From Calonectria ilicicola (lineage: Eukaryota; Ascomycota; Sordariomycetes; Hypocreales; Nectriaceae): a DNA stretch of 64,000 nt. The DNA lies in assembly GCA_020809705.1 (NCBI GenBank), contig CP085834.1, positions 682,001-746,000 of the forward strand. The letters are read 5' to 3'. The notes beneath the pieces were generated by a model. It saw nothing but the letters and a program-made list of their open reading frames with translations, was not told the DNA's origin and ran no database searches. Positions 1,556-25,667 of the stretch are shown piece by piece (the stretch's first letter is position 1; each line of letters opens with the position of its first letter). The position numbers and the translations under genes are program-made.

Positions 1556-4500
1556 TTATGCAGTCTGGATGCGGTCTACATATCTGCGAACAAACACCTC
1601 GTCAATCGGAGGCGCGGGATAATCGTGACCCCCAAGAACATTTTGTCCAGGTGGCAACGCCTTGATCATGGACGTCGTATTTTCATCAGTGTACCCATCA
1701 ATTACAGCCGTAATACGAGCCAGCGAGCTCTTTGGATGTGCGGAAGTATACTCGAGGGCATGTTTCTGCCACTCACTAAAGCATAAAATCCTCTTTTCAT
1801 CACTGCTGGTCGCGCTCAACAAATTGAAAAATTCATCAAAAGTGGGTGGATTTCGGTTCACAAAGTCAAAGTCCTTCCCAACGCGATGTCTTTCATGCGT
1901 CATAATTTCAACAATTGTCTTGGATAGATAGTCGACTGGCAAAACAGACGATAAATCGCCATCCAGCGACGGGAAAGCACCAAGTTCAAGACTTCCAGTG
2001 ATCAAATTATGCAAAAAGTCACCGCGGTCACGTCGAAAGTAACCATTTGTTGATGCAGTCACAAATGGTAAGCGGTAAGTTGATGCCATGGCACCGCGCC
2101 AACGTGCCGCTGCCACCATCCTCTCCGCAAGATATTTTGAAGTTCCGTAACCATATTCTTGGTCCTCTTCAGTTAGATCATAGCCCATATGCTTGGGAAG
2201 TGTTGATATCGTGGATATAAGATGAATAGCTTTTCTTTTGCCGTATGACGCCAATCGCAAGATTTCATGAGTACTGACAATGTTGGGGCCAACATAGTCC
2301 TCCAGCGGGCGCATCCAATCAACAAGTGCTCCCGAATGGCAAATTGCATCAACCTGGTCGGCTAAGTTGTAGAAAACCTCTTCTGAAAGACCAAGCAAAG
2401 GTTGGGCAAGGTCACCAACTACGATACTGAGTAACCGATCGTGGTAATTTTTCCATAGACCAAAACCATTCAGGGTTTCCACCAATCGTTGTCGGGCGTG
2501 AGATTCAGACGAGGCGCGGACAAGGCAGTACACGGAAATGCCCTGCTTGAAAAGTTCACCAACCATAAAAGCGCCAACAAATCCAGTGGCACCGGTGACC
2601 AGGACTGAGTGCGGGCAGCGTGGAGAGATGGATGACTCTTGCAAGACATTCTGAAATGTAAAGCTAGGGTCAAGAACACCCTTGCGAATGGCAGCCATAT
2701 TGAGACAAATCGAAGTGGCTGATGCACTTGTTGTTGGTGTTTCCTTGCCAGATTCTGAGGTTCCAGAGGAGGTACTAATCCAAACGTCTTGCAGTTGGAG
2801 TAGAAGCGACTCACTGAGAGCCCTTAGGTTCGGTTGAACGAGGACAACGTTGGCTGACAACGTCAGGCCTGTCAGGGTTGCCAGATGATTACGTATCATG
2901 ACCGCAGTTAAGGAGTCAACACCAATATCTTGCAAGGGTTGATCGACATTGACGTCATCAGGCTGCCCAAACCCTAGTGCTTTGGCCACTGTTTCTCGAA
3001 CCATTCGTAGGATAATACCGGAATGTTGGTCAGAGTCATTATCACGCAAAGTTTGATGGAGATCCCAGCCTCGCTGCACCGCAACTTGGGAACTACTGGG
3101 ACCCAGGATACCTTGAAGCAATGGCGGTATACCTCCCCGTTCTTCTAAGTAGGCACGGTGCTGTTCCAGATCCAACGCGGCAGCCATTGTGACAGCGCGA
3201 CCACTGCACACGGCCTGCTCGAGTAGCCGTAGCCCATCATCCGGCTCAAGCATACCAAGGCCAAATTGAGAGAGATGTGTCTGGGTTGTTCCCACCAGGG
3301 TGGATGCCATGCCGCCACCTCCCCAAGTTCCATATGCCACAGAGGTGGCTAGAAGGCCCCGGGCGCGTCGCAGCTGCGCCAGAGCATCAAGAAAGGTATT
3401 TGCGGCAGCGTAATTGCCAAGGCCCGGCAAGCCCATAATGCCGGAGATGGAGGAGAACATCATAAAAACGTCCAAGTCTAGTTTTTGGGTAAGCTGATGC
3501 AAATTCCAAGCACCTTCTACCTTGGGACCAAGAGGATTGACACACTGCTGCGGCGTCATGACCGAGAGAATGCCCGAGTCGACGAGGCCAGCGGCATGTA
3601 TGACACCGCGTAACGGACGGGTTTGATTGAACATGGTAAATATTGACGCGACGGCATAAAAGTCGGCTATATCATTAGCCACGACTGTTACTCTAGCGCC
3701 AAGTTGAGAGAGTTCGGCTACCAAGTCGTCGGCACCAACAGATTCCATGCCACGGCGCGAGGTCAGCACTAGGTCGCGAACGCCGTGAACCTTTACCAAC
3801 CAACGAGCCACGCGAGATCCAAGATCCCCTAACCCTCCCGTAATAAGCACTGCGCCATCGTTCCGGAGCAGAGGCTTTTTGATCACAGGGGTATTGGCAC
3901 GTTGCAATCGCGGCACCAGGACTCTCCTCCCACGCACAGCGCATTCTGGTTCGTTATGTAAGACCAATGTGGCGGCCATAGAGCCGATATCTATGTCTTC
4001 GCCAGCATCGATAAGTCGGAGTCGCAGTTCCGGGTGTTCACTCCGTGCAGTGCGCATGAGACCCCAGAGTGCAGATGCTCCGAGCCCGGTAGGTGCATCG
4101 TCTGCACCAGTACCGATCGATTGACGAGTGACCCAAATGATGGGTGCTGTAATTGAAGCTTCAGCAGCAGCCTGTAGCTGGACAAGGCCTTTTGTGAGTA
4201 GTTCACTCGTATGGCTTGGAGCATCAACGTCCGGTTCGGCATTCCACAATGACAAAAGACCGTCTAGTTTCTGAGCCTCCATGATGTCAGAGACAGGGAC
4301 CAGTTCTATGCCAGCGTGGGATAACGCTTGCCTAATGTCATCCGCCCAGTGCGTCGTGACTGTGTCGCCGAGCACTCCCCATAAGCCACCGGAGTGGAAG
4401 TTGTCAGTATTCATTTCCCCCCAGTTGACTTCAAAGCTGAGCTGGTCTACGCAGTTTTCAGTTTCTTTAACAGATAAAACATCATTTTGAGACATGTTGC

Positions 4501-7500
4501 TAGAGTAAAGCCTGGGCTTTCGCAACTGCTTGAAGCATTCTCGCTGGAAGGCGTAGGTCGGGATGTCCACGCGTCGGCAACCGAAAGGCTCAAAATAAGC
4601 AGACCAGTCAATGTGAACGTGATTTAAATGCAAATCTGAGAGACTGTTTTGGATAACTGAGATGCTGTCTTTTCTTGGGGCAAGCGACGGTAGCCAGATC
4701 GCCGAGCTGCTGTTGCTAGTGTTTGCAAGGCATGTGGCACCAAGGCCGCACAGCACGGGACCTGGGCCTAACTCAAGGAAAACATTAATCCCTTCGCCAT
4801 GAAGGGTCTGAATGGATTCACTGAAACGAACAGTTCGACGTGCCTGTTGGACCCAGTACGCGGGTTGCTCAAGCTCACCTGGCCGTGCAAGCTTCCCTGT
4901 CAGACTGCTGACCATGGCCAACGATGGTGATCTAAAGCTAATAGTCTCGGCTACAGCGTTGAAATCATCTAGCATGCCGTCCATGTGATGTGAGTGGAAC
5001 GCATGAGATACCTCGAGCCTCTTGCACTTGCGGTTCTGTGTGGTAAAATAGGTGACCAAGAGGTTGACGGCGCCAACGTTACCGGACGCAACCGTTTGAG
5101 TGGGCGTGTTGTAACCAGCAATGTCCACTTGGTCAGCCAAACGAAGTGCCTCTATTGCTTCAAGTACCTCGATACCACTCGCTTCGAGCGACACCATGCA
5201 GCCACAGGCGGGTATTGCTTGCATCAACCTCCCGCGTGCTGCTACGAGTCGACAGGCATCATTGAGATCCAGGATTCCCGCAATATGTGCAGCAGCGAGC
5301 TCACCAACGCTATGGCCTAGTAAAACGTCGGGCTTCACGCCCCAGCTTTGCCATAACCGCCCGAGCGCCACTTCCAGAGCGAATAGGGCTGGCTGAGCAA
5401 AGTCAGTGCGGTTCAGTAATGTTGCAGCTGGTCTGTTAGAATCAGTCCACATGACATCAAGCAGTGGTGCCTCTAGTTCTGTGAAAGCCGCTGCGATCTC
5501 TTCAATGGCATTCCGGAAGACGGGGTAGACTGAGTATAAGTCTCGCCCCATCCCAAGCTGTTGACTGCCTTGACCAGTGAAAAGCATCGCAAGACGCGGC
5601 TCCTCTGAAGTTGATGCGGGAGATTCGACGAGCGCAGCTGATTCTAATTTGTTCAAAAGTTCAGCCCGATCTACTGCCATCAACACTAATCGTCGCCGGA
5701 AATGAGTGCGAGTAGTCGCTAGCGAGTTGGCCACATTGTGGAGATGATCCTGATCCGTAACGTTGTTGCTCACATGCTGCTGGAGCTTCAGAGCTTGCTG
5801 GCGCAAGGCTGGCCATGTATTTCCGGACAGCAGAAAAGGCATAACATGCGGCAACTGGACAAATGGCTTGATAACACCTGTCTTGGTGGTATCATTTGAG
5901 TATTCCTCTAGAATGACATGTGCATTCGTGCCGCCAATGCCAAATGCACTAACACCCGCTAAGCGTTGACGAGATGCATTTGGAAGCCACGGGCGGTTCT
6001 GCTGCACTAGTGCAATTCTAGCACCCTCCCAATCCACGATTGGAGTAGGTTCAGCAGCATGCAGGGTTTTGGGGAGTGTGTTATGCTGCATGGCCAGGAC
6101 CACTTTCAAGAGGCCTACGAGACCAGCGGCAGCCTGAGTATGGCCAATGTTCGACTTGGCTGAACCAAGCCAGAGAGGCTCTGTCATGTCAGAACGGCCG
6201 CGGCCAAAAACCTCACCCAGTGCAGTGGCCTCGATTGGGTCACCCAGCTTAGTGCCAGTGCCGTGCGCCTCGATGTAGTCAATGTCACTGGGCATTAATT
6301 GAGCATCACTTAAAGCTGCACGGATGAGGCGCTGCTGTGCTGGGCCACTTGGCATTGTGAGTCCAGCGCTGCGACCGTCGTGATTGATTGCAGTGCCGCG
6401 AAGAACGGCATGGATTTTGTCACCGTCTCGCTGTGCATCTGACAGGCGCTTGAGAACTACGACGGCGGACCCTTCACCCCAACCCGTGCCCTGTGTATCG
6501 GCCGAGAAGGCCCTACATCGTCCATCGGCCGACATGCCACGAAGCCGACTGAATTCTACATGCAATCCCGGATTGAGCATGAGACTAATGCCAGCAGAGA
6601 CAGCCATGTCACATTCACCTTGACGCAATGCGCTGCACGCCAGATGAGTCGTGACTAATGAGGAGGAACAAGCCGTATCCACGGTCATAGTCGGGCCTTC
6701 AAGGCCCAAGACGTATGAAATGCGACCGGACAAGGTGCCGCCAGCGGACCCAGTCGTCGTGTACCCATCAAGTTCCGATAGATCCTGAGTCGCTGCGGGA
6801 TCAAGACGGAAATGAGCGGGGATGGTGCTGGTACCAATGAAAACTCCAGTCCGACTACCACGGAGCTGGTCCATCGTGTAACCCGCACGCTCGAAGCCTT
6901 CCCAGCAGGTTTCGAGCAGTAAATGTTGTGAGGGGTCGAGTGAGCGAGCCTCTCTAGGTGAGATGCCGAAGAAGGATGCATCAAAGGAGTCGATAGAGGA
7001 CAAGAACCCACCTTGACGACAATACGATTTACCGCTAGCGGTGGCATCAGCAGCATACAGTTCATCGGCATTCCAGCGATCCTTGGGTATGTCAACAATG
7101 GCATCTCCGCCACTCTCGAGCAGCTCCCAGAAATCTTCCGGGGTGTAAATACCTCCGGGAAGTCTGCATGCGAGTGACACTATGGCGATGTCTTCCTTGG
7201 TCGCGATGTGAGGCTGTCGAGCAACAGCTACTGGTTCCGAAGTCGTGCCGTCAGCTGAATTGAGGTATGTGGCCAGCGTTTTGATGGTGTGGTGCTCAAA
7301 CAACTTGGCTACCGGGACCGCTCTTCCAAGAAGCTCCTGCAACTCCTTTTGAACTTTGACAATGCGAACAGAATCCCCACCGATCTGAAAAAAGTTGTCT
7401 TTAGAGGAGATTCGATCATGTCCGAGAACTTGTGACCAGATGGCCAATATTTGATGCTCCAGGTTAGTCGTAGGTTTGATAGTGATGCTGGACACCGGAG

Positions 7501-9133
7501 ACGCGTCCTTAAGGTCTGGGAGTGCTTTGCGATCAATCTTTCCATTGAGAGTCAACGGGAGAGCGTCCAGAAGAACAAAGAATGCTGGGACCATGTAAGA
7601 GGGCAAACGCTCGGCCAGCCACGGGCGCAGCAGGCTGTCCAGGACGTTACTGGCAGTATCCTGATCCACAGGCACCTTAGCATTGCGAACACAATACGCA
7701 ATGAGCTGCTCGTCGCGGCTGACTACAACGGCCTTAGAGACGAACCAGTGGTCAGTAATGACTGCCTCTACCTCGCCAGGCTCGATTCGGTAGCCTCGGA
7801 CCTTGACCAGACTGCCAATGCGGCCCAGCACGCTCAGCTTCCCAGGTTCCGTAAAGCAGGCTAGGTCCCCAGTGCGATATAAACGGCCGGCATGAAATGG
7901 ATTATCAAGAAATACCGATTGTGTGAGCTCAGGCTTGTTACGATAGCCACGGGCCAAGGTAGCCCCGCCAATGTAGAGTTCGCCAGAAGCGCCAAGCGGC
8001 ACTGGCAACATGTCCTCATCAAGCACATAGAATCGGTCATTAGCAACGGGCCTGCCGATAACCACTGCTTCCTTCTCCGTCACTCTCCAACAACTGCTGT
8101 ATGTAGTCTCGGTAGGCCCGTATAAGTTCCACAACGCATCGCCGCAGGCAAGAAGGCGATCAGCAAGATGGCGAGAGAGAGCCTCACCAGAGGACAACAT
8201 TTTGTGAAGCCGGGGTTGGCCTGCCCAGCCTGAATCAAGCAGCATCTGCCAAGCCACTGGAGTACCCTGCATCATATTCACGGCATATTCATTCATGAGT
8301 CTCATGAGAGCACTAGGATCCCGGACCTCATTAGCCTGTGCAATGACAATCGAGGCGCCACAGATCAGAGGTAAGAATAGCTCCAAGAACGCCATATCGA
8401 AGGAAATGGTAGTGATGGCCAACATGCGATCTTCCCTGCAGCACCCGGGATCTTTTTCTAGCGAGAGCAGAAGATTGGACATTGCTCCATGGCTCAGCTC
8501 TACCCCCTTCGGCTTGCCTGTCGAGCCGGAGGTGTACATAACATAGACGAGATCTTCCGGCTGAACTCCTATATCTAGGAGATAAACGTCATCATCCAAA
8601 GCCAAGTCATACTTCTCTTCTGTTAGGACTTCGTCAGTGTTCAAGCACTGCCCTGTCCACTCTTTCAAGACGGACTTTGTCCCAGTGGTAGCAAGAACGA
8701 GACTCGGAGTTGCGTCATGAAGCATCTGTGCCATGCGCTTGATGGGAAATGTAGGGTCAATGGGTACGTAGGCAGCACCAGTCTTCATCACCGCCAAAAG
8801 TGCAACGACAAGGTCGACTGACCGATCAATGACCACGCCAACGAGGTCACCTTGTTGAACTCCCTCGTGAATGAGGGCGACGGCGAGGCGGTTGGCAAGA
8901 ATATCGAGATGCTGGTAGGTGACGTGTGTGCTTCCGCAAATCAAGGCAATACGTTCTTGGTTTGTTTTGGCGCATTGCTCAAACAGATGATGAACACAGT
9001 GATTGAGTGTTGTGTCATCATCAGTATTATTGAAGTCGTCGCCAAGCGCCATGCCATTGTCAGCTGAGATCTCATCCGTGATCCCATCGGACTGCATGAT
9101 GATTTTGGGGGTCTCGGGTTTCTGAATAGACAT
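1556..9133 (-). CDS. swnK: SwnK-like NRPS-PKS hybrid synthetase (A-T-KS-AT-KR-ACP-R)
   Basis: Intronless, 2525 residues. Domains in order: adenylation (about 50-560, YTSGSTGKPKG, YRTGDLA); carrier (GGDSV, Ser about 586); ketosynthase (about 648-1075, DTACSSS with Cys about 822, EAHGTGT, NIGHT); acyltransferase (about 1180-1480, GHSVG with Ser about 1275, and HAFH, usual for malonyl-CoA); ketoreductase (about 1755-1940, TGGLGDLG, Tyr about 1908); second carrier (GVDSL, Ser about 2074); thioester reductase (about 2175-2420, GATGFVG, YGTSK). There is no condensation domain: the KS must join the aminoacyl group to malonate. This matches SwnK, which activates pipecolate, extends it by one malonate and releases it reductively to an indolizidine. 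A hand-read adenylation code (D-M-L-Q-L-S-L-Y-S) is tentative. The reductase and PhyH dioxygenase nearby support the call. All catalytic motifs I could check are intact. A diverged homologue using another cyclic amino acid remains possible. Confidence 0.82.
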   Translation of the reverse strand: MSIQKPETPKIIMQSDGITDEISADNGMALGDDFNNTDDDTTLNHCVHHLFEQCAKTNQERIALICGSTHVTYQHLDILANRLAVALIHEGVQQGDLVGVVIDRSVDLVVALLAVMKTGAAYVPIDPTFPIKRMAQMLHDATPSLVLATTGTKSVLKEWTGQCLNTDEVLTEEKYDLALDDDVYLLDIGVQPEDLVYVMYTSGSTGKPKGVELSHGAMSNLLLSLEKDPGCCREDRMLAITTISFDMAFLELFLPLICGASIVIAQANEVRDPSALMRLMNEYAVNMMQGTPVAWQMLLDSGWAGQPRLHKMLSSGEALSRHLADRLLACGDALWNLYGPTETTYSSCWRVTEKEAVVIGRPVANDRFYVLDEDMLPVPLGASGELYIGGATLARGYRNKPELTQSVFLDNPFHAGRLYRTGDLACFTEPGKLSVLGRIGSLVKVRGYRIEPGEVEAVITDHWFVSKAVVVSRDEQLIAYCVRNAKVPVDQDTASNVLDSLLRPWLAERLPSYMVPAFFVLLDALPLTLNGKIDRKALPDLKDASPVSSITIKPTTNLEHQILAIWSQVLGHDRISSKDNFFQIGGDSVRIVKVQKELQELLGRAVPVAKLFEHHTIKTLATYLNSADGTTSEPVAVARQPHIATKEDIAIVSLACRLPGGIYTPEDFWELLESGGDAIVDIPKDRWNADELYAADATASGKSYCRQGGFLSSIDSFDASFFGISPREARSLDPSQHLLLETCWEGFERAGYTMDQLRGSRTGVFIGTSTIPAHFRLDPAATQDLSELDGYTTTGSAGGTLSGRISYVLGLEGPTMTVDTACSSSLVTTHLACSALRQGECDMAVSAGISLMLNPGLHVEFSRLRGMSADGRCRAFSADTQGTGWGEGSAVVVLKRLSDAQRDGDKIHAVLRGTAINHDGRSAGLTMPSGPAQQRLIRAALSDAQLMPSDIDYIEAHGTGTKLGDPIEATALGEVFGRGRSDMTEPLWLGSAKSNIGHTQAAAGLVGLLKVVLAMQHNTLPKTLHAAEPTPIVDWEGARIALVQQNRPWLPNASRQRLAGVSAFGIGGTNAHVILEEYSNDTTKTGVIKPFVQLPHVMPFLLSGNTWPALRQQALKLQQHVSNNVTDQDHLHNVANSLATTRTHFRRRLVLMAVDRAELLNKLESAALVESPASTSEEPRLAMLFTGQGSQQLGMGRDLYSVYPVFRNAIEEIAAAFTELEAPLLDVMWTDSNRPAATLLNRTDFAQPALFALEVALGRLWQSWGVKPDVLLGHSVGELAAAHIAGILDLNDACRLVAARGRLMQAIPACGCMVSLEASGIEVLEAIEALRLADQVDIAGYNTPTQTVASGNVGAVNLLVTYFTTQNRKCKRLEVSHAFHSHHMDGMLDDFNAVAETISFRSPSLAMVSSLTGKLARPGELEQPAYWVQQARRTVRFSESIQTLHGEGINVFLELGPGPVLCGLGATCLANTSNSSSAIWLPSLAPRKDSISVIQNSLSDLHLNHVHIDWSAYFEPFGCRRVDIPTYAFQRECFKQLRKPRLYSSNMSQNDVLSVKETENCVDQLSFEVNWGEMNTDNFHSGGLWGVLGDTVTTHWADDIRQALSHAGIELVPVSDIMEAQKLDGLLSLWNAEPDVDAPSHTSELLTKGLVQLQAAAEASITAPIIWVTRQSIGTGADDAPTGLGASALWGLMRTARSEHPELRLRLIDAGEDIDIGSMAATLVLHNEPECAVRGRRVLVPRLQRANTPVIKKPLLRNDGAVLITGGLGDLGSRVARWLVKVHGVRDLVLTSRRGMESVGADDLVAELSQLGARVTVVANDIADFYAVASIFTMFNQTRPLRGVIHAAGLVDSGILSVMTPQQCVNPLGPKVEGAWNLHQLTQKLDLDVFMMFSSISGIMGLPGLGNYAAANTFLDALAQLRRARGLLATSVAYGTWGGGGMASTLVGTTQTHLSQFGLGMLEPDDGLRLLEQAVCSGRAVTMAAALDLEQHRAYLEERGGIPPLLQGILGPSSSQVAVQRGWDLHQTLRDNDSDQHSGIILRMVRETVAKALGFGQPDDVNVDQPLQDIGVDSLTAVMIRNHLATLTGLTLSANVVLVQPNLRALSESLLLQLQDVWISTSSGTSESGKETPTTSASATSICLNMAAIRKGVLDPSFTFQNVLQESSISPRCPHSVLVTGATGFVGAFMVGELFKQGISVYCLVRASSESHARQRLVETLNGFGLWKNYHDRLLSIVVGDLAQPLLGLSEEVFYNLADQVDAICHSGALVDWMRPLEDYVGPNIVSTHEILRLASYGKRKAIHLISTISTLPKHMGYDLTEEDQEYGYGTSKYLAERMVAAARWRGAMASTYRLPFVTASTNGYFRRDRGDFLHNLITGSLELGAFPSLDGDLSSVLPVDYLSKTIVEIMTHERHRVGKDFDFVNRNPPTFDEFFNLLSATSSDEKRILCFSEWQKHALEYTSAHPKSSLARITAVIDGYTDENTTSMIKALPPGQNVLGGHDYPAPPIDEVFVRRYVDRIQTA

Positions 9134-10427: not shown

Positions 10428-11342
10428 TCACAAGATCATCTCAGGATCATGATCGAGCTCTGCAAAGCCGTCTCGCAAAGTCCGAAAACCAACATCCCGG
10501 AAAAACTTTTGCCGTTGCAACATAAACTCGACCTGCGGGATCGAGCTTGACTGGCTCGCGGAGAACAAGTAGTAGTCCGCCAAAACCTTCGAATCTTCGT
10601 CATTGGCTGCCTTAAAGGCCTCTGCAACCTGATAAAGCGAAATGTGTTCAGGCTTGAGTTCCGGGCGATACTTCTGTATGATGATCTTGGCGACATCATT
10701 CCAGCACGAACGCTGCCCAGAAATGTAAGTGTATGGTTCCCAGGTCAATTCGCTATCAACAAGCACAACCAAGGCCTTGGCAACATCCCGTGCCCAAGTG
10801 AAGTCCACATTCTCATTCCCTGTTCCAGGAATCAGGACCTTACCATTAGTAAGATCAATAGGGTGGCAGTTACCAATGTCTTTGATATACCGGTTCTTGG
10901 ACGGCACCAAATAATCAGCAAGCCAGCCGCAGCAGACGATAGTCCACTCAAGATCCCTCTGTTCTCGAAGTGCCTGGCGGATAGGCTCTCGAGTGCGATA
11001 ATAGAAACCTGGCTCCTCCGGGAAATTCTTCGCATCACCAGCAAACTCAGATGGTATAAAGCGTTTGCAAGTAAGACTCTGTTGACAGGCTCGGATCAGA
11101 GTGCTGTGGACATCAATGTATGATGGAGAAATGTCCGAAATTGTGGATATCATGGCTCGACTCCCCACCAACGCTTCGTCCAGGGATTTCAGAGAGTAGT
11201 CGGTAATGAATTGGGTCACGCCCTTTTGATCAAATTGGGCCTTATGGCTCCGAGTGAGGATGACAACTTCATGGCCGGCCTGAGTGAACTCCTCGCAAAT
11301 GTATCGCGCCAGATCACCAGAGCCAGCAATAACCACGCGCAT
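10428..11342 (-). CDS. NmrA/isoflavone-reductase-like oxidoreductase (SwnN/SwnR type)
   Basis: 304 residues from the Met at 11342. An upstream in-frame Met at 11396 would add 18 residues, but the Rossmann fold begins directly after the second Met (MRVVIAGSGDLARYI), so the shorter form is preferred. The dinucleotide-binding GSGDLAR loop, RFIPSEFAG and FTWARDVAKAL are typical of the NmrA-like atypical short-chain reductases. In swainsonine clusters two such enzymes occur: SwnR, assigned to pipecolate supply, and SwnN, assigned to reduction of the indolizidine intermediate. I cannot tell which one this is. It lies on the same strand as the synthetase and divergent from the dioxygenase across 1.3 kb. 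A soluble NADPH-dependent imine or ketone reductase is the likely role. Confidence 0.8.
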   Translation of the reverse strand: MRVVIAGSGDLARYICEEFTQAGHEVVILTRSHKAQFDQKGVTQFITDYSLKSLDEALVGSRAMISTISDISPSYIDVHSTLIRACQQSLTCKRFIPSEFAGDAKNFPEEPGFYYRTREPIRQALREQRDLEWTIVCCGWLADYLVPSKNRYIKDIGNCHPIDLTNGKVLIPGTGNENVDFTWARDVAKALVVLVDSELTWEPYTYISGQRSCWNDVAKIIIQKYRPELKPEHISLYQVAEAFKAANDEDSKVLADYYLFSASQSSSIPQVEFMLQRQKFFRDVGFRTLRDGFAELDHDPEMIL

Positions 11343-12683: not shown

Positions 12684-13553
12684 ATGCCTACCGCAACTCC
12701 TACCAGCGTCCAACGCGTCCCAGCTTCTGACGGCGCTGATGCCATTCTGAAAGCCCTTCATGAGGATGGTAGTGTCGTCATTAAGAATCTCCTGACACCA
12801 GATCAAGTTCGTCGGATCAACGAGGAGATTCAGCCGGCAATGGACAAACTTGAAGTCGGTTCCAAGGTCCCTGACAATTACATCAAATCGTTTCACGGGC
12901 ACAACACAAAGCGACTGACTGGAATGATCACACTGAGCAAGACATTCCGTGAGGAAGTCATGGACAACGACCTGCTCCACGAATTGTGTGAGAAGATATT
13001 CGTCGAGGACTCGGGTACCTATTGGCTGAACACGGCTCAAGTCATTGAGATCGGGCCCGGCAGCGCCGCCCAAGATTTGCACCGCGACCAATGGCAGTAT
13101 CCTGTCTTCACCCACTGCGGGCCAAATGCTCCAGAAGCACTCATCAATTTCATGCTAGCTTTGACCCCATTTACTGAAGAGAATGGCGCTACTAGAGTCA
13201 TCCCAGGGAGCCACAAGTGGGAGGACTTCAACGAGAATGGAACTCCAGAGGACACTGTTCCTACTGAAATGGATCCAGGTGACGTTTGCTTTTTGAGTGG
13301 CAAGGTGGTTCACGGTGGAGGAGCCAACAAGACGGCAGACTTTTGGAGACGAGGGATGGTAATCATTTACCAGCCGTCGTATCTGACTCTCGAAGAGGCG
13401 CACCCATTCCTTGTTAAGAAGGAGCTTGTTGACACGCTGAGTCCACGGGCTCAGTCAATGATTGGTTTTCGCAGTCAGTTCCCCAAGAATAGTCCTGGAG
13501 TATGGAAGCGTGACTACAGCGATGCCAGTGACGTTTTGCACACTTGGGTTTAG
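12684..13553 (+). CDS. PhyH-family Fe(II)/2-oxoglutarate dioxygenase (SwnH1/SwnH2 type)
   Basis: 289 residues, no intron. The start is the ATG at 12684; an earlier in-frame TTG at 12675 is not needed. The iron facial triad is visible: H133 and D135 in DLHRDQW, and the distal H210 in VVHGGGANK, followed by Arg (RRGM) for 2-oxoglutarate binding. FMLALTPFTEENGAT and VIPGSHKWEDF are hallmarks of fungal phytanoyl-CoA-dioxygenase-like tailoring enzymes. Swainsonine clusters normally carry two of these, which act late on the indolizidine ring. Only one copy is present here. It is divergent from the reductase and co-oriented with the NRPS, 790 bp upstream of it. Confidence 0.85.
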   Translation: MPTATPTSVQRVPASDGADAILKALHEDGSVVIKNLLTPDQVRRINEEIQPAMDKLEVGSKVPDNYIKSFHGHNTKRLTGMITLSKTFREEVMDNDLLHELCEKIFVEDSGTYWLNTAQVIEIGPGSAAQDLHRDQWQYPVFTHCGPNAPEALINFMLALTPFTEENGATRVIPGSHKWEDFNENGTPEDTVPTEMDPGDVCFLSGKVVHGGGANKTADFWRRGMVIIYQPSYLTLEEAHPFLVKKELVDTLSPRAQSMIGFRSQFPKNSPGVWKRDYSDASDVLHTWV

Positions 13554-14342
13554 TAGGTGAAGTCTCACATTGTTTGGATTTCAGACTAGTTAGTTACCGT
13601 AACCGAATGGTACAAAAATGCCTCGTCTATTTTTGTCGTTCATTTTTAAACCTTTGTAACCTAGAGCTCACCTTTGTCAGTAATGCTGTTAATGTTCCGC
13701 TCGGGTTTCCATTATTCTGTTGACGAGTTTCACGAATTTTTTTCCATGCCAATATTTGTAACAAAAATAGAATATCCCTCTTCTTGTCTCCTCGTGTCTT
13801 GATCTCGCTAATGCTTGTCTTACAGCCTTGGTCAAATTGCCTCTCCCGTGCCACTACGTATGCATATCACAGCATGTCTCAGGTCAGGTCTTTCCTATTC
13901 TTTCCGATCCCGCTAATTTTTCACTAGCTACTATGACACAGCAGCTCGTATACTCCTCATACCACTGCATACATGTCCCACAAGGTGGAGTAGACCAGTG
14001 CATTCTATTCCTTTCTATTCAATTATTCCCGATTGCACAATGGCGTAATATGATCCTTCCAGCTGAAAGCCTGCTTTGATCTTCACCAGATCGGTCCGAT
14101 TAAATTCCCGTTTAGTCTGACTATCAGGACATGACTAGCTTCTGAAAGAGCGATTCTTAAGTGATGCATGAACACCTGTCAACTATATGGAGGGGTCCTG
14201 AAATATCCAAGAACCTTCTGATCCTGAAACATCTTTGCTTTATTTCATTCTATCAACACTCCAAAAATTCCTTTTTAGGCATTGTGCCCCGTTCAACTGC
14301 ATTTCCACCTTGCTAAACCAAACAAGCGAGGCACAACGCAAA
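13554..14342. other. Spacer between dioxygenase and NRPS
   Basis: 790 bp containing the 3' region of the dioxygenase and the NRPS promoter. Both strands have only short, compositionally poor open frames. No RNA gene or repeat was recognised. Confidence 0.5.
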
Positions 14343-17300
14343 ATGGTACCTGGATTCATCCAAATGCCTCACCAGACACACCGTCAGTTACAAAAGTCTG
14401 GTGTTGGAGATGCTCCAAAACTTGAAGATTGGATTTCGTCCCTGACAGCATGTCGGCCAGCAGAATTTCCTTGTGACAGGCCTCGAATCGGCGCACTCCC
14501 ACACAAGACGGATGCGTTCGACTTCACGATTCCCGCCGAAGATTCTCATGCCTTGCAGTCCTTTTGTGAACAGTCTGGATTCGCAAACTTTGTGGTGCTT
14601 TTGGCTGTATTTCGAGCTGCGCATTCTCGCCTCAGTGGTGCTGTAGATGGGACACTTGCCGTCAGCACAGACTTATGCTCCTCGTCGCTGTCGAGCAATG
14701 GAACCTCAGCCACCAACAATCTACAGGTAGTTCAAATTACAGTTGACGAAGAGTCGCTCGAGGATGTGATAAGTCAAGTTCAACAAGCACTGTTTGGTTC
14801 CAAGCCCACTCCGAATATCCCATTCGGAAAGGTCATTTCTATGATCGACACGAATAAAGAGATATCAGGGCCCCCTCTTTTGCCCATTCTATTCAATTTT
14901 AACTCGGACACGAAACATTGGTGTTCTTCCTCAGGACATAACTTAGAACCCGCTGCCTCTGCCATGACATCCATGTTTGACATTGAATTTCATTTGCTCA
15001 AAGAGGCAGAAAGCCTGAGAGGAAAGATACTTTTCTGCTCCGAGATGTATGAGCGCGAGACCATCAACAGCATCATCTCTGTGTTTAAAAGTGTTCTCTC
15101 GGCCAGCGCTCTTCAAATGGATGTCCCCATAAAAGCGCTCCCGTTACTCACCGAGGACGATTACGCAGCTTTGAACACCAAAGGTTTGGTTCAAACCGAC
15201 CAAACAGACTATCCACGTGACTCAAGTGTGATTGACATCTTTCGCCAACAAGCCGCTGTTTGTCCATTCAAAGTTGCAATCAAGGACTCAACCACTGAGT
15301 TGACGTACTCTCAGCTGGACTGCCTGTCAGACGCGATCGCTTTGTGGTTGGCAAAACAATCGTTTCCTCCCGAAAGCATGATTGGTGTTCTGGCCGATCG
15401 GACTTGCAACACAGTTGCCGTTTTTCTCGGCATTCTGAAGGCGAACCTAGCCTATTTGCCCTTTGATGTTCGGTCTCCAGTCAACAGGATTGAGGCTATT
15501 CTATCTTCTATTTCCGGGCCAAGGATGGTTTTGGTTGGTCAAGGCATCGAGCCTCCAGCTCTTCAATTAGAAGATGTCCAGTTTGTTCCTTTCCACAAGG
15601 CTTTTGCCGACTCGGCCCAGATAGGGCTCAACGGCCAGACCTCAGTGAAAAACTCACCCTCAGCTACGAACTTGGCATACGTTATGTTCACATCAGGCTC
15701 GACTGGAGCACCAAAAGGAGTAATGGTGGAACATCGCGGAATCGTTCGGCTTGTGAAAGAAAGCAACATGGCACACCAACTTCCCCGCCCGCTAGTCATG
15801 GCTCATCTCTCGAACACTGCTTTTGACGCCGCCACATGGGAGATATATGGCGCCCTTCTCAATGGGGGAACACTTATCTGCATCGACACTGCGACTGTGC
15901 TAGATTGCGAGGCTCTTGGCCGTAAATTTGCCGATGAGTCGGTTCAGACCGCCTTCTTCACTACTGCACTTTTCAAGCAGTATTCTCGTGACTACCCTTC
16001 TATCATTTCCGACCTTGAAATGATATGTGCTGGTGGTGAAAGACTTGATCCACGTGATTTGGCCGCCGCGTTGGACCTCATGAACGGTCGATTTGTTCAT
16101 GTTTACGGGCCTACCGAGAATACTACTTTCAGCACAATGTATCCTGTTCTAGACACGGATTCATGTCGCGCTGCAGTACCTATCGGTCACGCAATCAGCA
16201 ATTCTGGAGCCTTTGTAATGGATCCGCAGCAGTGCCTTGTTCCTCTAGGAGTTCTTGGTGAGCTTGTAGTCACTGGCGATGGCTTGGCGCGAGGCTATAC
16301 AGATCCCAAACTGGATCTGGACCGTTTTATCTGCATTAAGATAGGCGGGAAGCAGGTCAAAGCTTATCGAACGGGAGACCTTGTTCGACACCGGCCATCC
16401 GATGGGCAATTGGATTTCATTGGACGACTGGATGGGCAGGTCAAGATACGAGGCAACCGAGTTGAGCTTGGTGAGATTGAGCACATTCTATGCAGCCATG
16501 ATTCTGTACGCGACGGTGTGGCAATTTTGAAGCAAGAGGGTCGTAATGAATCTCAGCTTGCTTGTTTTGTTACAATCAATTTTGATGCAAAACTCGAACA
16601 ACAAACGCACCATAACGGTGAAGAATCGAAGAGGGTTCAGGCATGGAGCCATCTTTATGATGAAAATATCTACTCTCAGATGAGCAACATGTCGCCAGAA
16701 AAAGTCGGGCGCGATTTCATGGGATGGACGTCCATGTACGATGGTCAGGCTATTGATAGGGACGAAATGAGCGAGTGGTTGGATGATACAATTGCAGCCA
16801 TCCTCAACGGAGGTGCACCAGGGCATGTTCTTGAGATAGGAACTGGGTCTGGAATGATTCTTTTCAATCTTGGAAAGGGACTGAAGAATTATGTGGGCCT
16901 AGATCCATCTGAAGCCGCCTTTGCCTTTGTAGCCCGGATGTCCAAAGCGCACCCAGTCTTGGCTGACAAGGTACATCTATACAAAGCTACAGCTTTGGAA
17001 ATTGGTCATTTGGACACTGTGCTCGCTCCCAACGTTGCGATCTTGAACTCTGTTGTTCAATACTTCCCCAGTCAGGAATATCTATTTCGGGTCATTCAGG
17101 ATCTTTTACAGCTTCCTGGCCTCAAGTCGATATTTTTTGGTGACATCCGGTCTCAAGCATTATACCAACAATTCAGGGTTACAAGAGCATTGAAAGTGTT
17201 TGGGACAGATCTCCATAAAAACGACATGCTATCTCAAATTGAGGCAGAGGAAGGGGAATTGCTTCTTGATCCAGGTTTCTTTACTTCTCTTGTCGATCGG

Positions 17301-19649
17301 CTTCCGGAGCACGTTGAACATGTCGAGATTTTGCCTAAGCGAATGAAAGCAACAAATGAGTTGAGTTGCTATCGTTACGCTGCAGTTGTCCAGATAAAAC
17401 ATCAAGGCCTACAAAAACAGCAGATCCGTCGCATTGATGAAGAGGAATGGATTGACTTTAGAGAATGTGGCCTCGATCCTGAGTCGCTTTTGCAGCTGCT
17501 CAAACGTTCTGCCAGTTTGTCTGCAGTGCCTGTGTGCAATATCCCATACAGCAAAACTGTTTTTGAAAGATTTGCTGTAGACTGCCTATTAAGCAAATCT
17601 ACAGCGGCGGATGCGAATTGGTTCCAATCTGCATGTCGGCGGGCCGAACAATGTCCTTCTCTTTCCCCTGCCGACTTGATAGAAATATCCAAAAAGTCTG
17701 GCTTTCGAGTTGAAATCAGCTGGGCTCGGCAATATTCTCTCAAAGGAGGTTTTGATGCCATATTTCATCGCTACGAGCATACCAATGAAAGTGCCAGGCT
17801 CATGTTTCATTTCCCCACCGATCATCAAGGCCGAGAGCTAGCTTCATTCAGCAGTCAGCCGTTACGCTTGCAAGCCAAGCAGGAAATACACAAACAGCTA
17901 CAGGAGACATTGAAGGCCAACTTGCCGTCATATATGATCCCGAAACAAATTAAAATTCTCGATGAGATGCCGGTCAATCCTAACGGCAAAGTGGACCGTC
18001 GACTCCTCGCCCAAATGATCCAAGATTCAGCCGCTCCAAAGGGGTTCTTGAGACAACCAACAACAGACGCTGAAAGACAAATGCGAATTATTTGGGCTGA
18101 AGTACTCAACATTAATGTGAACACTTTCGGACTAGATCATAGCTTTTTTGACCTCGGCGGAACGTCAATTGATGCCATGAGGATTGTGGGCCTCGCTCGC
18201 AAAGCCGGCTTCGATCTGACGGTGCAAGAGATCTTCCGTCGAAAGAAACTCGGGGACCTTGTCCCAGAACAAATTATCGACTCTAACAATATCTACGAAC
18301 TACTTGACTCGGTTGAACTGATTGATCCTGTGACGAAGAAAAATGTTCTTGCGAGTGTTGACACCTTGAATCTCAAGATCAATTCCCAGACGATTGCCGA
18401 CGTTCTACCCATCACATACATCCAACACGAGTTCTTATACTGTCCCACCGCGTGGCGACAATACATAGACTATTTCTACATGGATCTTGAGAATAATCGT
18501 CTAGACCTTGGCGATTTCAAGCAAGCCTGTGATCTGACACTGGAAAGGCATCCCATCCTTCGCACATGCTTTCTACGCGTCATGGGCAAGTATTGGCAGT
18601 TTATTCTACATCAATTAGATTCGCCCCTTCGTATCGAGGATGTGGAAGGAGATTTTGATTCATTCTTTCACACATATATCCTGAATGACTTGCATCAGCT
18701 GAAGGAGTTTGAACCTCCTCTGGCCATTATCCTTTTTAGGCATAAAGATCATGGTATTCGTTTGACTGTGCGTATGCAGCATGCTCAAAATGACGCGCTT
18801 TCAATTCCGATCATTTTCAAATCCCTGCTGCAAGGTCACGATCAGACACCGTCATCATCCGACGCCCCGACTTTTTCGCAATTCATGTCGTATGTTTCTC
18901 AGAAACGCCCGATGGCAATTGAATATTGGAAGAATCTACTTCAAGGAGCTTCCATCACTCAAATAAAGCCCAGGATTCGCCCCAGCATGGCAGTTGCTGA
19001 CCCAAAGCCTCTGGCTGTGCATGCAGAGACAGATCTACCAGCCCTTCCCGACAATACAATCATGATTTCAACTCTAGTCAATGCAGCGTGGACGGTGTTT
19101 TTGGCTCGTGCCACTGGAAAAGATGACGTTGCTTATTGGCAGTTTGTTGCTGGCCGTAACTCCGCCATTCGAGGAGTGGAGGACATTGTGGGACCATGCA
19201 TGGCCTCTGCCCCTACCCGTGTGATTCTATCAACTCTCCAAACACCGCTTCAACTACTTCGTTTCATTCAAGACCAGCTCATGGCAAGTGGAGAAGCAGA
19301 TTCTCTCAGTAATGAAATCGTAGAACAGTGCACTAGTTGGCCATCTGGGATAATGGATTCGGTCATCCAACACCAGAGCTTTGGTGAAACTCCATCACTC
19401 GAGTGCTTTGGAGCTGAACGCCAAATCCGATTTTTCGAAAACCCATATCTACTAGAGCCATATCCGTGGATCGCGTCTTTTATCAAAGGCAACCGTCTAC
19501 ATATCAGTCTCTTTACGACTACTGGGCTTGTCACCGTCAACAAGGGAGGTTGCATGGTTAAGGACATTTGTAAAATTGCGGAGGAACTTATAACTGGCTG
19601 CGATATGCCTTTGCAGCAATGGTTGCAAAAGATCGAGCTGAGCATCTAA
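14343..19649 (+). CDS. NRPS: half C - A with inserted methyltransferase - T - C
   Basis: 1768 residues from the ATG at 14343; the frame extends 36 codons upstream but only to a TTG. Order: the C-terminal lobe of a condensation domain without HHxxxDG (about 45-280); adenylation (about 295-760: FTSGSTGAPKG, FDAATWE, YGPTE, YRTGDLV); an SAM methyltransferase inserted before the last adenylation motif (about 764-1165: EIGTGSG); the rest of adenylation (NPNGKVDRR, about 1211); carrier (GGTSID, Ser about 1270); and a terminal condensation domain (about 1350-1760) with QHAQNDA in place of HHxxxDG, keeping the second His and the Asp. This layout predicts loading and N-methylation of one amino acid, then transfer by the final C domain to a nucleophile. 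A hand-read code (D-A-W-F-I-A-V-T-F-K) does not identify the substrate for me. It is co-oriented with the dioxygenase. I know of no such gene in described swainsonine clusters. Confidence 0.88.
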   Translation: MVPGFIQMPHQTHRQLQKSGVGDAPKLEDWISSLTACRPAEFPCDRPRIGALPHKTDAFDFTIPAEDSHALQSFCEQSGFANFVVLLAVFRAAHSRLSGAVDGTLAVSTDLCSSSLSSNGTSATNNLQVVQITVDEESLEDVISQVQQALFGSKPTPNIPFGKVISMIDTNKEISGPPLLPILFNFNSDTKHWCSSSGHNLEPAASAMTSMFDIEFHLLKEAESLRGKILFCSEMYERETINSIISVFKSVLSASALQMDVPIKALPLLTEDDYAALNTKGLVQTDQTDYPRDSSVIDIFRQQAAVCPFKVAIKDSTTELTYSQLDCLSDAIALWLAKQSFPPESMIGVLADRTCNTVAVFLGILKANLAYLPFDVRSPVNRIEAILSSISGPRMVLVGQGIEPPALQLEDVQFVPFHKAFADSAQIGLNGQTSVKNSPSATNLAYVMFTSGSTGAPKGVMVEHRGIVRLVKESNMAHQLPRPLVMAHLSNTAFDAATWEIYGALLNGGTLICIDTATVLDCEALGRKFADESVQTAFFTTALFKQYSRDYPSIISDLEMICAGGERLDPRDLAAALDLMNGRFVHVYGPTENTTFSTMYPVLDTDSCRAAVPIGHAISNSGAFVMDPQQCLVPLGVLGELVVTGDGLARGYTDPKLDLDRFICIKIGGKQVKAYRTGDLVRHRPSDGQLDFIGRLDGQVKIRGNRVELGEIEHILCSHDSVRDGVAILKQEGRNESQLACFVTINFDAKLEQQTHHNGEESKRVQAWSHLYDENIYSQMSNMSPEKVGRDFMGWTSMYDGQAIDRDEMSEWLDDTIAAILNGGAPGHVLEIGTGSGMILFNLGKGLKNYVGLDPSEAAFAFVARMSKAHPVLADKVHLYKATALEIGHLDTVLAPNVAILNSVVQYFPSQEYLFRVIQDLLQLPGLKSIFFGDIRSQALYQQFRVTRALKVFGTDLHKNDMLSQIEAEEGELLLDPGFFTSLVDRLPEHVEHVEILPKRMKATNELSCYRYAAVVQIKHQGLQKQQIRRIDEEEWIDFRECGLDPESLLQLLKRSASLSAVPVCNIPYSKTVFERFAVDCLLSKSTAADANWFQSACRRAEQCPSLSPADLIEISKKSGFRVEISWARQYSLKGGFDAIFHRYEHTNESARLMFHFPTDHQGRELASFSSQPLRLQAKQEIHKQLQETLKANLPSYMIPKQIKILDEMPVNPNGKVDRRLLAQMIQDSAAPKGFLRQPTTDAERQMRIIWAEVLNINVNTFGLDHSFFDLGGTSIDAMRIVGLARKAGFDLTVQEIFRRKKLGDLVPEQIIDSNNIYELLDSVELIDPVTKKNVLASVDTLNLKINSQTIADVLPITYIQHEFLYCPTAWRQYIDYFYMDLENNRLDLGDFKQACDLTLERHPILRTCFLRVMGKYWQFILHQLDSPLRIEDVEGDFDSFFHTYILNDLHQLKEFEPPLAIILFRHKDHGIRLTVRMQHAQNDALSIPIIFKSLLQGHDQTPSSSDAPTFSQFMSYVSQKRPMAIEYWKNLLQGASITQIKPRIRPSMAVADPKPLAVHAETDLPALPDNTIMISTLVNAAWTVFLARATGKDDVAYWQFVAGRNSAIRGVEDIVGPCMASAPTRVILSTLQTPLQLLRFIQDQLMASGEADSLSNEIVEQCTSWPSGIMDSVIQHQSFGETPSLECFGAERQIRFFENPYLLEPYPWIASFIKGNRLHISLFTTTGLVTVNKGGCMVKDICKIAEELITGCDMPLQQWLQKIELSI

Positions 19650-20299: not shown

Positions 20300-20640
20300 A
20301 ATCACATAGGCAGGACAACGGCCAGAATTGATACTATAGACACGCCGTTTTATTGGCGACAGGGTCATTACTTTTGCACTCTAAAGATGCAGTGGGTTGA
20401 CCCGGAAATGTAGGACAATGTCATCGACTTCATCCGGGAATGCAAAACTGAGCTGCTCCCTCATGCCATCGAGAAAAGTCCCGCTCATGCCAACTATATT
20501 GATGGCACGGTGTACAGCTGGAAACAGGCATACTATGGTAGCAACTACCATCGCCTCCAAACGGTCAAGACGAAGTGGGATCCCAGAAACTTCTTTCACA
20601 ATCCGCAATCCATCAGGGTACTCGATGATACTGTCCCATC
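20300..20640 (+). pseudogene. FAD-linked (berberine-bridge-type) oxidase, C-terminal relic
   Basis: One frame reads TPFYWRQGHYF, LKMQWVDPEM-stop-DNVIDFIREC, then YGSNYHRL and TKWDPRNFFHNPQSI. These are the closing blocks of fungal FAD-linked oxidases with a BBE C-terminal domain. A TAG at 20411-20413 interrupts the frame, and nothing upstream (flavin-binding domain, His/Cys flavin attachment) can be found. So this is a truncated, mutated remnant. It is on the same strand as the NRPS and about 650 bp downstream, suggesting a lost tailoring oxidase of the same cluster. Confidence 0.82.
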
Positions 20641-21193
20641 CCCGTCTCAGGGTGTCTCGAGCTATGAAGAAATGTCGAACTCGCCCAAGGTGAAGCAGTC
20701 CAAGGAATCGTGGCAAACATCTTCATTTAGGATTCAAACAGAGTAATTTTCCCGGCCTCCAACAGCTGAGGAGGTCTGTGAAACTGATGCGAGAGTTCGG
20801 TCGGGCGTACTCGATAACTCAGTGTGGTTAGATATATGTGAATTGATAGTATTCTGGGAACCAAGTTTGTCGCGTTGGTCCATTTACATTGCTCATTCTC
20901 AATAAAAGTCAAGATAAGCAACATCAGGTCTGTTGTGTCCCCTATAAATATAAGATAGGGGACGGCTGTTCGCTGGTACCAGAAGTTTGTGAATCTTTTG
21001 AACCATTACAAACAATAAACCTGAGCATGAGTCCCAAACAGCCCAGAAAAATGTCAGCCTCAGTCACAGAGAGGGTCGATTCACTCATGGAAAGATATAC
21101 AGGCCCAAATTCAGAGAAACAATAGCCAAACAATCCTCACGTTCCTTAGATAGCAAGTTTGTAAGACATTCACCTCAAGCTTGTGTCGCTCCG
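20641..21193. other. Intergenic region
   Basis: Sequence between the oxidase relic and the lectin stop codon. Open frames are short and unlike any family. No repeat or RNA gene recognised. Confidence 0.45.
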
Positions 21194-24125: not shown

Positions 24126-25667
24126 TCAATTAATCATTTCAACTAGGGCAAGTTCTGCACCTTCTCCCTTGCTCCTATGACGAGCAAAGAACATCCAGTA
24201 AAAAACAAGAAAAACGACACAACAGCCCAGAACAACAATAGAATAGTTCATAGTCGAGCCTGTAGCAGGCAAATACACTGGAAATAGAGACATGATGATA
24301 ATGAAAACACCCCATACAACGGTGAGAATATTGATCATGTACCCTAGGCCTGGGACCAGGCCGAGATTGAATGAGCGTTCAGGCAAGGTTGACCGGCCTC
24401 TGATCAATAACATGATTACTGGAGCAATGTACGTTGCCTGATACGTTGATACGACACAACTAACGACAGCATTCCACGCCGTCTCGCTCGCTATGTAGAG
24501 TATACCGCAGAGCATACTCAGAAATATCGTAAGGAATGTGGCATTGACTGGGCAAGTCGTCTTTGGATCAGTTTTCGCAAAGGTCGGGGCAAAAGGAACC
24601 CATCCTAGACGACCAAGAGCCCAAACAACTCTAGCAATAGCAGTGAGGCCTTGAGCACCAGTAAACTGAGTCATGACAACCATAAGCACGGTGGCAACCG
24701 CTAAGCCCCCACCACGGCCGGCTGAATTGACGTAAAGCTGGAGATAGATTTCGCCGAGGGATGAGTTGACCAGTTCATCGAGGTTCCCCAATGAATAAAG
24801 CATAAGTATCGAAAAAGAGAAGCACACGAGCGCGGAGAAAGCAACAGCTGACATTAAAACACGTGGAATGGTACTCCGAGGTTTGATGGTTTCCAGTGAC
24901 ATGTGTGTTGCTGCCTCAAGACCAGTGGTGGCAAAGGTGGCCTGAACCAGAGAGAGGAGAAAGGCCATTGCTGAGTTTGACCAGCCGGTGTTGTTGGTAA
25001 ATTTTAAGAAGACAAATTCCGCAGACTGGGGCTCAATATGCGAAGACCAGAGACCAATCGTCACAACAAGCATACCCAAGAGGAAGATGACCGACATCAA
25101 GCTCCACACTGGCATCCAAGATGGACGAAGACTAGCTGGTACATAGGAGAGTGCAAAGCCCCAGAACACCAGACAAAGCTGCCAGCGCTCCCATTCGTAT
25201 CCATTTAGGATGGTAACAAGTGCCGTGACTGCCTGTGTCGCAGCAAAACCCACGGCAGCCACCCCTGTAGCGTACGACATGACGTTGATCCAACCCATGA
25301 AGAATGCGAACGTGCGGCCCTTACCAGTGGGAGCAAGTTCTATGATCCAGAACAAGGCTCCTCCAGGGTGCGGCCAGACTGAGACCAGCTCAGACAGGGA
25401 CATTGCAGTGAGTAATTGGAAGAAGCCGACGACTAATGTTCCGTAGAGAAATCCCACTGGGCCGCCCACATCGATGGAGACACCGATGGTTAGGAGGTAA
25501 TTGGCCCAGCATGATGTGATTGTTATTTGGTAGCCAAGAAGTGTCCAAAAGCCAAACTTGGGCTGATGACCAACATCTTCTCCATCGATCGTCGTGTGTG
25601 TTTTTGTCGTAGGTTTGATCTCGGCTGGGTGTTCGTTCGAAGTCACGGTATCGATCGGAGAGCCCAT
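24126..25667 (-). CDS. ACT-family amino acid/choline permease (SwnT-like)
   Basis: 513 residues, no intron. A hydrophilic N-terminus of about 45 residues is followed by about 12 membrane segments. Conserved blocks of the amino acid/choline transporter branch of the APC superfamily are present: FGFWTLLGYQIT, SVWPHPGGALFW, a GLEAATHMSLE segment, and the C-terminal PERSFNLG before the last helices. Yeast Hnm1 and fungal GABA permeases belong here, as does SwnT of swainsonine clusters, thought to export or import pathway compounds. It would act in the plasma or vacuolar membrane. It lies 4.5 kb from the NRPS across the repeat-bracketed segment. A general choline/GABA transporter unrelated to the cluster is the alternative. 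Confidence 0.85.
   Translation of the reverse strand: MGSPIDTVTSNEHPAEIKPTTKTHTTIDGEDVGHQPKFGFWTLLGYQITITSCWANYLLTIGVSIDVGGPVGFLYGTLVVGFFQLLTAMSLSELVSVWPHPGGALFWIIELAPTGKGRTFAFFMGWINVMSYATGVAAVGFAATQAVTALVTILNGYEWERWQLCLVFWGFALSYVPASLRPSWMPVWSLMSVIFLLGMLVVTIGLWSSHIEPQSAEFVFLKFTNNTGWSNSAMAFLLSLVQATFATTGLEAATHMSLETIKPRSTIPRVLMSAVAFSALVCFSFSILMLYSLGNLDELVNSSLGEIYLQLYVNSAGRGGGLAVATVLMVVMTQFTGAQGLTAIARVVWALGRLGWVPFAPTFAKTDPKTTCPVNATFLTIFLSMLCGILYIASETAWNAVVSCVVSTYQATYIAPVIMLLIRGRSTLPERSFNLGLVPGLGYMINILTVVWGVFIIIMSLFPVYLPATGSTMNYSIVVLGCCVVFLVFYWMFFARHRSKGEGAELALVEMIN

What the first reader, a model, noticed from the sequence alone, without database searches (positions are those of the whole stretch)
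14343..19649. Methyltransferase-containing NRPS joined to the SWN-like core
A half C - A(MT) - T - C NRPS sits directly beside and co-oriented with the dioxygenase. Described SWN clusters lack such a gene. The two synthetases together could make an indolizidine carrying an N-methylaminoacyl ester or amide, a pathway I do not know to be described.
Basis: inference. Interest (0 to 1): 0.85.

Follow-up and report, generated by a model that had tools for sequence, protein, structure and literature searches.

The report
Single-module N-methylating synthetase beside alkaloid genes
A fungal chromosome carries, next to a small alkaloid-type cluster related to the swainsonine genes, an intact one-module enzyme that looks built to N-methylate an amino acid and hand it to another molecule; the neighbours may make one product together, but this is not shown, and relatives of each part also occur without the other.

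Summary
The gene is real and intact: 14343-19649 (+), 1768 aa, half C - A(MT) - T - C. TqaA's terminal C_T domain is the nearest solved structure to its terminal C, whose active site, QHAQNDALS, fits the QHxxxDxxS motif of AneB, a single-module NRPS shown to esterify free alcohols. Most likely it loads a hydrophobic amino acid, N-methylates it and transfers it to a diffusible OH or NH.

The 'SWN-like core' needs correction. The hybrid synthetase is a SwnK-like paralogue (best 64% over full length; SwnK orthologues share over 70%). With its NmrA and PhyH neighbours it resembles a described orphan cluster type. Among listed hits, SwnK-like and PhyH share 17 contig lengths; the NRPS list shares none with either. 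The closest kin found for both the half C and terminal C is an MT-less half C-A-T-C enzyme in the same genome (C7), beside a paralogue of the window's permease and with no SwnK-like gene in the 30 kb examined. NRPS plus permease may thus be a unit that joined the alkaloid cluster. A joint product (alkaloid with an N-methylaminoacyl ester or amide) is plausible but unproven.

The parts
14343..19649 (+). Single-module NRPS, 1768 aa: half C - A(MT) - T - C
   Evidence: Open frame, Pfam; of the 120 listed hits the best near-full-length ones (98-99% of query covered) are 42-44% identical, e.g. P0026
14457..15173 (+). N-terminal half condensation domain (C-terminal half of the profile only)
   Evidence: Pfam Condensation profile 208-455 of 456; grouped with the half C of the C7 paralogue, support 0.975, long branches
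15240..16298 (+). Adenylation domain; pocket residues read by eye as D A W F I A V T F
   Evidence: Pfam AMP-binding 1.6e-60; alignment; 56% to P0066
16830..17108 (+). Methyltransferase core (VLEIGTGSG) inside the A domain
   Evidence: PF08242 2.4e-5, below its cut-off; MT stretch 59% to P0058 of Pyrenophora teres; within one stretch on 5wmm
18084..18263 (+). Thiolation (T) domain with LGGTS
   Evidence: Pfam PP-binding 1.7e-11
18318..19646 (+). Terminal condensation domain of the C_T kind
18777..18803 (+). Active-site motif QHAQNDALS (QHxxxDxxS)
   Evidence: His and Asp invariant in the 10-row alignment
12684..13553 (+). PhyH Fe(II)/2OG-type dioxygenase (SwnH-like at family level), 289 aa
   Evidence: Pfam PhyH 2e-41; best relative 70%; shares 17 contig lengths with SwnK-like hits
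10428..11342 (-). NmrA-like reductase (SwnN-like at family level)
   Evidence: Pfam NmrA 1e-14
1556..9133 (-). SwnK-like hybrid synthetase A-T-KS-AT-KR-T-R, 2525 aa
   Evidence: Pfam; 64% to Ilyonectria, Dactylonectria and an unnamed contig, 59% to Slafractonia SwnK-like protein 1; tree
24126..25667 (-). Amino acid permease family transporter; a paralogue lies beside the sister NRPS on C7. Possibly part of the unit
   Evidence: Pfam AA_permease_2 1.5e-39; two close paralogues found in the genome, 62% and 53%, next 28-32%

Best explanation
The NRPS is a stand-alone aminoacyl transferase. Its A domain activates a hydrophobic amino acid, the embedded methyltransferase N-methylates it, and the terminal C_T-type domain uses His and Asp of QHxxxDxxS to let a free hydroxyl or amine attack the thioester, releasing an N-methylaminoacyl ester or amide. 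The half C is a non-catalytic remnant. The most likely acceptor is the compound made next door: the SwnK-like hybrid extends an amino acid by one malonyl unit and releases it reductively, the NmrA reductase closes or saturates the ring, and the PhyH enzyme adds the hydroxyl that the NRPS caps. Shown: gene, domains, motif, predicted fold. Inferred: substrate, N-methylation, chemistry, acceptor, joint pathway.
Against: No contig length shared between the NRPS hits and the SwnK-like or PhyH hits among those listed. The sister enzyme on C7 has no SwnK-like gene in the 30 kb fetched and keeps company with a permease instead. No shared promoter words beyond shuffles. GC3 of the NRPS (0.468), like that of the C7 copy (0.463), is below SwnK-like, NmrA and PhyH (0.519-0.564), though other window genes vary as much (0.416-0.557). 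AneB works with H in place of its Q, so the Q is no proof. The MT families stay below Pfam cut-offs.
Confidence: 0.43

Rival explanations
1. NRPS and permease are a separate two-gene unit that landed beside an unrelated SwnK-like cluster. The NRPS works the same way, but on another acceptor, and the permease moves its substrate or product.
For: On C7 a half C-A-T-C enzyme lies about 2 kb from a permease 51-53% identical to the window's. Only two such close permease paralogues were found, which puts a chance neighbourhood within 5 kb at about 0.0004, or 0.014 if all 70 other matching stretches are allowed. Half C and terminal C of the two NRPSs group together (0.975, 0.999). A berberine-bridge-type piece at 20414-20743, with no FAD-binding part seen upstream, hints at a break next to the NRPS.
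Against: In the window the NRPS is adjacent to PhyH, while the berberine-bridge piece and a DUF346 gene lie between it and the permease, which is on the other strand. The permease's closest paralogue (62%, C7:2952976) has no listed NRPS match nearby, though only 27 of 344 NRPS candidates were scored. No acceptor pathway was recognised around the C7 copy in the 30 kb scanned.
Confidence: 0.3
2. The NRPS works alone: its terminal C cyclises two N-methyl residues or hydrolyses the thioester, giving a cyclic dipeptide or a free N-methyl amino acid.
For: The nearest structural relative, TqaA CT, cyclises. Terminal C domains can release free acids (IvoA; proposed for Fda1; PMC12751119, passages). 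Relatives in the tree end proteins that sources name destruxin synthetase (P0002, P0004, P0037).
Against: Only one module, so cyclisation needs two rounds. The motif begins with Q, whereas the other terminal domains in the tree begin with S, T, A or N, and H in the C7 sister; Q fits the ester-forming AneB, although Q is not essential there.
Confidence: 0.17
3. The gene is a decaying fragment of a multimodular destruxin-like synthetase.
For: Half C at the start; many relatives in Pyrenophora teres look like fragments.
Against: Full-length open frame with catalytic motifs and a well-predicted terminal domain. Some other listed proteins also start with the half C, their match beginning at residue 8 (P0068, P0069, P0075, P0084).
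Confidence: 0.05

Closest known systems
AneB / ThmA / FlvI single-module NRPSs (PMC10720950)
   Same: One module ending in C; QHxxxDxxS as in AneB; a small-molecule acceptor is proposed here
   Different: Those are A-T-C; here a half C in front and an MT inside A; acceptor unknown. Their sequences were not compared directly
SubK of the subrubine pathway (PMC13107220)
   Same: Single-module NRPS in an alkaloid cluster, proposed to esterify the alkaloid
   Different: Described as A-T-C, no MT; acceptor is a tryptophan-derived propellane; sequence not compared
TqaA C_T domain
   Same: Best sequence and fold match of the terminal domain
   Different: TqaA cyclises a tripeptide; its motif reads SHSQWDG, here QHAQNDA
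SwnK-like1 clusters (PMC7864672) and SWN clusters (PMC5473758, PMC9030584)
   Same: Hybrid synthetase of the same domain order, NmrA and PhyH genes beside it
   Different: Not a SwnK orthologue; one PhyH gene instead of two; an extra NRPS
Destruxin-like and Fda1-type N-methylating modules (PMC12751119)
   Same: A domain with embedded MT; related terminal C in destruxin-like proteins
   Different: Those are multimodular; Fda1 was not compared by sequence

Membership tests
SWN cluster with SwnK orthologue | SwnK orthologues share more than 70% identity (PMC5473758) | tested here: not met
   Best 64% over full length (bacterial proteins 65% over 42%); 59% to Slafractonia SwnK-like protein 1; no Metarhizium, Arthrodermataceae or Alternaria among the named rows of the 120 listed. 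A proven SwnK sequence was not compared directly
SWN cluster with SwnK orthologue | Domain order A-T-KS-AT-KR-T-R | tested here: met
SWN cluster with SwnK orthologue | Two dioxygenases swnH1 and swnH2 | tested here: not met
   One PhyH gene in the window; no other match on this stretch in the genome search, the best full-length one elsewhere 29% identical on C4
SWN cluster with SwnK orthologue | Two reductases, swnN (NmrA) and swnR | tested here: inconclusive
   One NmrA-like gene; no second reductase recognised in the window, but no swnR sequence was available
SwnK-like1 orphan clusters | SwnK-like gene with SwnN and SwnH genes in its flanks (PMC7864672) | tested here: met
   NmrA and PhyH beside it, at family level only; SwnK-like and PhyH hits share 17 contig lengths
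SwnK-like1 orphan clusters | Place in the SwnK-like1 subclade of the published tree | not tested
   That alignment was not available; the window lies apart from Slafractonia SwnK-like protein 1
AneB-type single-module ester-forming NRPS | One A-T-C module with QHxxxDxxS and T-domain Ser | tested here: met
   (plus half C and MT as extras)
AneB-type single-module ester-forming NRPS | Close kinship of the C domain to AneB/ThmA/FlvI | not tested
   Their sequences were not held
AneB-type single-module ester-forming NRPS | Ester formation with a free alcohol | not testable with these tools
   needs an assay
Fungal C_T domains | Terminal position, C fold, catalytic His and Asp | tested here: met
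N-methylating A-MT modules | MT inserted in the A domain with SAM motif | tested here: met
   Pfam MT scores below cut-off; activity not shown

The most novel reading that the evidence does not exclude
A SwnK-like alkaloid pathway has recruited a dedicated one-module synthetase with built-in N-methyltransferase that caps the hydroxylated bicyclic alkaloid with an N-methylamino acid as an ester or amide: a class of conjugated alkaloids, and an N-methylating variant of the AneB/SubK type, that I did not find described (listings).
Probability: 0.35. Interest if true: 0.75.

Novelty: new variant of a known kind. Interest (0 to 1): 0.5.

Why it matters
SwnK-like genes paired with this PhyH type turn up in many named Sordariomycetes among the hits, and I found no product reported for them; PMC7864672 says its SwnK-like1 and -like2 groups had no member backed by experiment. 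A neighbour that should add a mass shift of a known kind (an N-methylaminoacyl group) gives metabolomics a concrete handle. If true it would also extend single-module NRPS chemistry on diffusible acceptors to N-methylated donors. The mixed kinship of the enzyme (half C and C_T with a local paralogue, A-MT with other modules) hints at how such enzymes arise.

Tried and rejected
SWN cluster proper: rejected on identity and gene content. Missing N-terminal half of C upstream: none recognised in 13550-14345. Shared promoter words of SwnK-like, NmrA/PhyH and NRPS: 7-mers 28 against a shuffled mean of 25.11, 8-mers 2 against 2.13, 9-mers 0. Another complete SwnK-like gene in the genome: apart from the window only a relative on C6 at 59-60% whose matching stretches skip the KR region; 19 of 370 candidates were scored. 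NCBIfam gave no specific name. GC3 is only a weak hint. The A-domain code, read by eye, gives no firm substrate. The eight paper searches showed in their listings no paper on an NRPS beside SwnK or on an A-MT-T-C single module; open-licence library only, most listed papers not opened. Contig matching compared the longest contig length per hit among the 120 best of each search, so a weaker NRPS relative on such a contig could be missed, and equal lengths on long contigs show the same chromosome, not adjacency. The NRPS search drew words from the first 500 residues and scored 7988 candidates. The terminal C of the C6 paralogue was not in the tree. The host could not be named.

Full report
WHAT IS THERE. 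The frame 14202-19649 (+) is open and has an ATG at 14343. The 1768-aa product is half C - A(MT) - T - C. The half C covers only profile positions 208-455 of Condensation, and nothing like the missing half was recognised upstream. Residues 256-1223 align in one stretch to 5wmm, recalled as the interrupted A domain of TioS, so the MT sits inside A. The motifs I looked for by eye are present (SAM motif VLEIGTGSG, LGGTS, YGPTE, NGKVDR). Pfam's MT scores stay below their cut-offs.

WHERE THE NRPS COMES FROM. The protein search scored 7988 candidates and listed 120 of 4152 hits, ranked by total score, which favours multimodular proteins. The best near-full-length identity listed is 44% (for example P0026, Cladobotryum, 99% covered). 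By parts, A reaches 56%, MT 59%, the terminal C 40%. In the host genome (69.9 Mb, 12 contigs, unnamed fungus) the kin of both the half C (0.975, long branches) and the terminal C (0.999) is one gene, C7:3237169-3241107, half C-A-T-C without MT. The A domain does not follow this: it falls with P0012 beside Pleosporales modules, several of which carry MT (support 0.71 and 0.87; MT). This suggests that an A-MT core was swapped into a local single-module enzyme; inference.

THE PERMEASE. The window's permease (24126-25667) has two close paralogues among the 71 matching stretches of the genome: 62% at C7:2952976 and 53% at C7:3243233, the latter about 2 kb from the sister NRPS. Chance neighbourhood within 5 kb is about 0.0004 for two paralogues and 0.014 for seventy. 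So NRPS and permease keep company in two places, though in the window 4.5 kb apart with other sequence between. This favours a unit of their own and counts against a tie to SwnK.

THE ALKALOID CORE. The hybrid synthetase is A-T-KS-AT-KR-T-R. It is 64% identical over its length to its best hits (an unnamed contig, Ilyonectria, Dactylonectria) and 59% to Slafractonia 'SwnK-like protein 1'. Cook et al. report more than 70% among SwnK orthologues and 53-55% between SwnK and the Slafractonia paralogues (PMC5473758, results part 1 of 2). It is therefore a paralogue. A described orphan group, SwnK-like1, has SwnN and SwnH genes in its flanks (PMC7864672, passages); the NmrA and PhyH genes here fit that at family level. 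In my tree the window lies with Nectriaceae, Xylaria, Ophiocordyceps and Purpureocillium proteins, not with Slafractonia's. The hybrid family has been traced to a bacterial donor (PMC3226686, abstract). The pocket residues, read by eye, differ from Slafractonia's (window D M L Q L S L Y S; Slafractonia D I L Q L G M V W), so pipecolate as substrate is not shown.

SYNTENY TEST. I compared longest-contig lengths of the three hit lists (120 rows each; 109, 117 and 120 distinct lengths for NRPS, SwnK-like and PhyH). SwnK-like and PhyH share 17; the NRPS list shares none with either. Locus tags support real closeness in two: PFICI_07789 and PFICI_07791, CDD81_2029 and CDD81_2032. So the SwnK-like/PhyH pair is conserved, and the NRPS is a local addition as far as these lists reach. 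Other SWN surveys seen (PMC9030584; PMC8403587, passages) mention no extra NRPS in what I read; Cook et al. note unnamed additional biosynthetic genes beside two clusters.

HOW IT MOST LIKELY WORKS. A single-module N-methylaminoacyl transferase acting on a diffusible acceptor (general mechanism, my estimate 0.7), with the neighbouring alkaloid as acceptor (overall 0.43). Precedents: AneB; DrcB making an amide (named in PMC10720950); SubK, proposed to esterify an alkaloid (PMC13107220, passages). Fda1 and IvoA warn that terminal C domains may also release free acids (PMC12751119, passages).

NOVELTY. Single-module ester- and amide-forming NRPSs are known; SwnK-like clusters are known. In the listings of eight searches (open-licence papers only) I saw no description of the combination, or of an embedded N-methyltransferase in such a single module.

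Noticed in passing
20414-20743 (+): C-terminal piece of a berberine-bridge-type oxidase (Pfam BBE 7.9e-20) with no FAD-binding part recognised between it and the NRPS; looks like a remnant.
   Followed up: partly
21194-22201 (-): Repeat protein with DUF346 (lectin-like by look, recalled) between NRPS and permease.
   Followed up: no
about 29798-31768 (+): Cytochrome P450 in several exons (one exon tested, Pfam 9.1e-24; the rest by eye); possible further tailoring gene.
   Followed up: no
G000:C6:1630554-1635020 (-), L038-L040: Second SwnK-like hybrid (59-60%) whose matching stretches skip residues 1531-2031, which hold the KR region, near a frame with a VNGING-type repeat.
   Followed up: partly
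G000:C10:621523-625545 and C10:796211-798298: Two more large NRPS frames (5480 and 3293 aa) within about 100 kb on either side of the window's NRPS.
   Followed up: no
2-1291, 37928-40066, 50396-54778, 55048-56469: HET genes (37928-40066 and 55048-56469 by Pfam; 2-1291 by look only) and a NACHT-ankyrin gene around the cluster; 36-38 kb is AT-rich (GC 0.33).
   Followed up: no
rows P0149-P0240: Bacterial hybrids of about 3700-4100 aa, many from actinobacteria, share 62-65% identity over about 42% of the SwnK-like protein; the published donor guess was Burkholderiales (PMC3226686, abstract).
   Followed up: no
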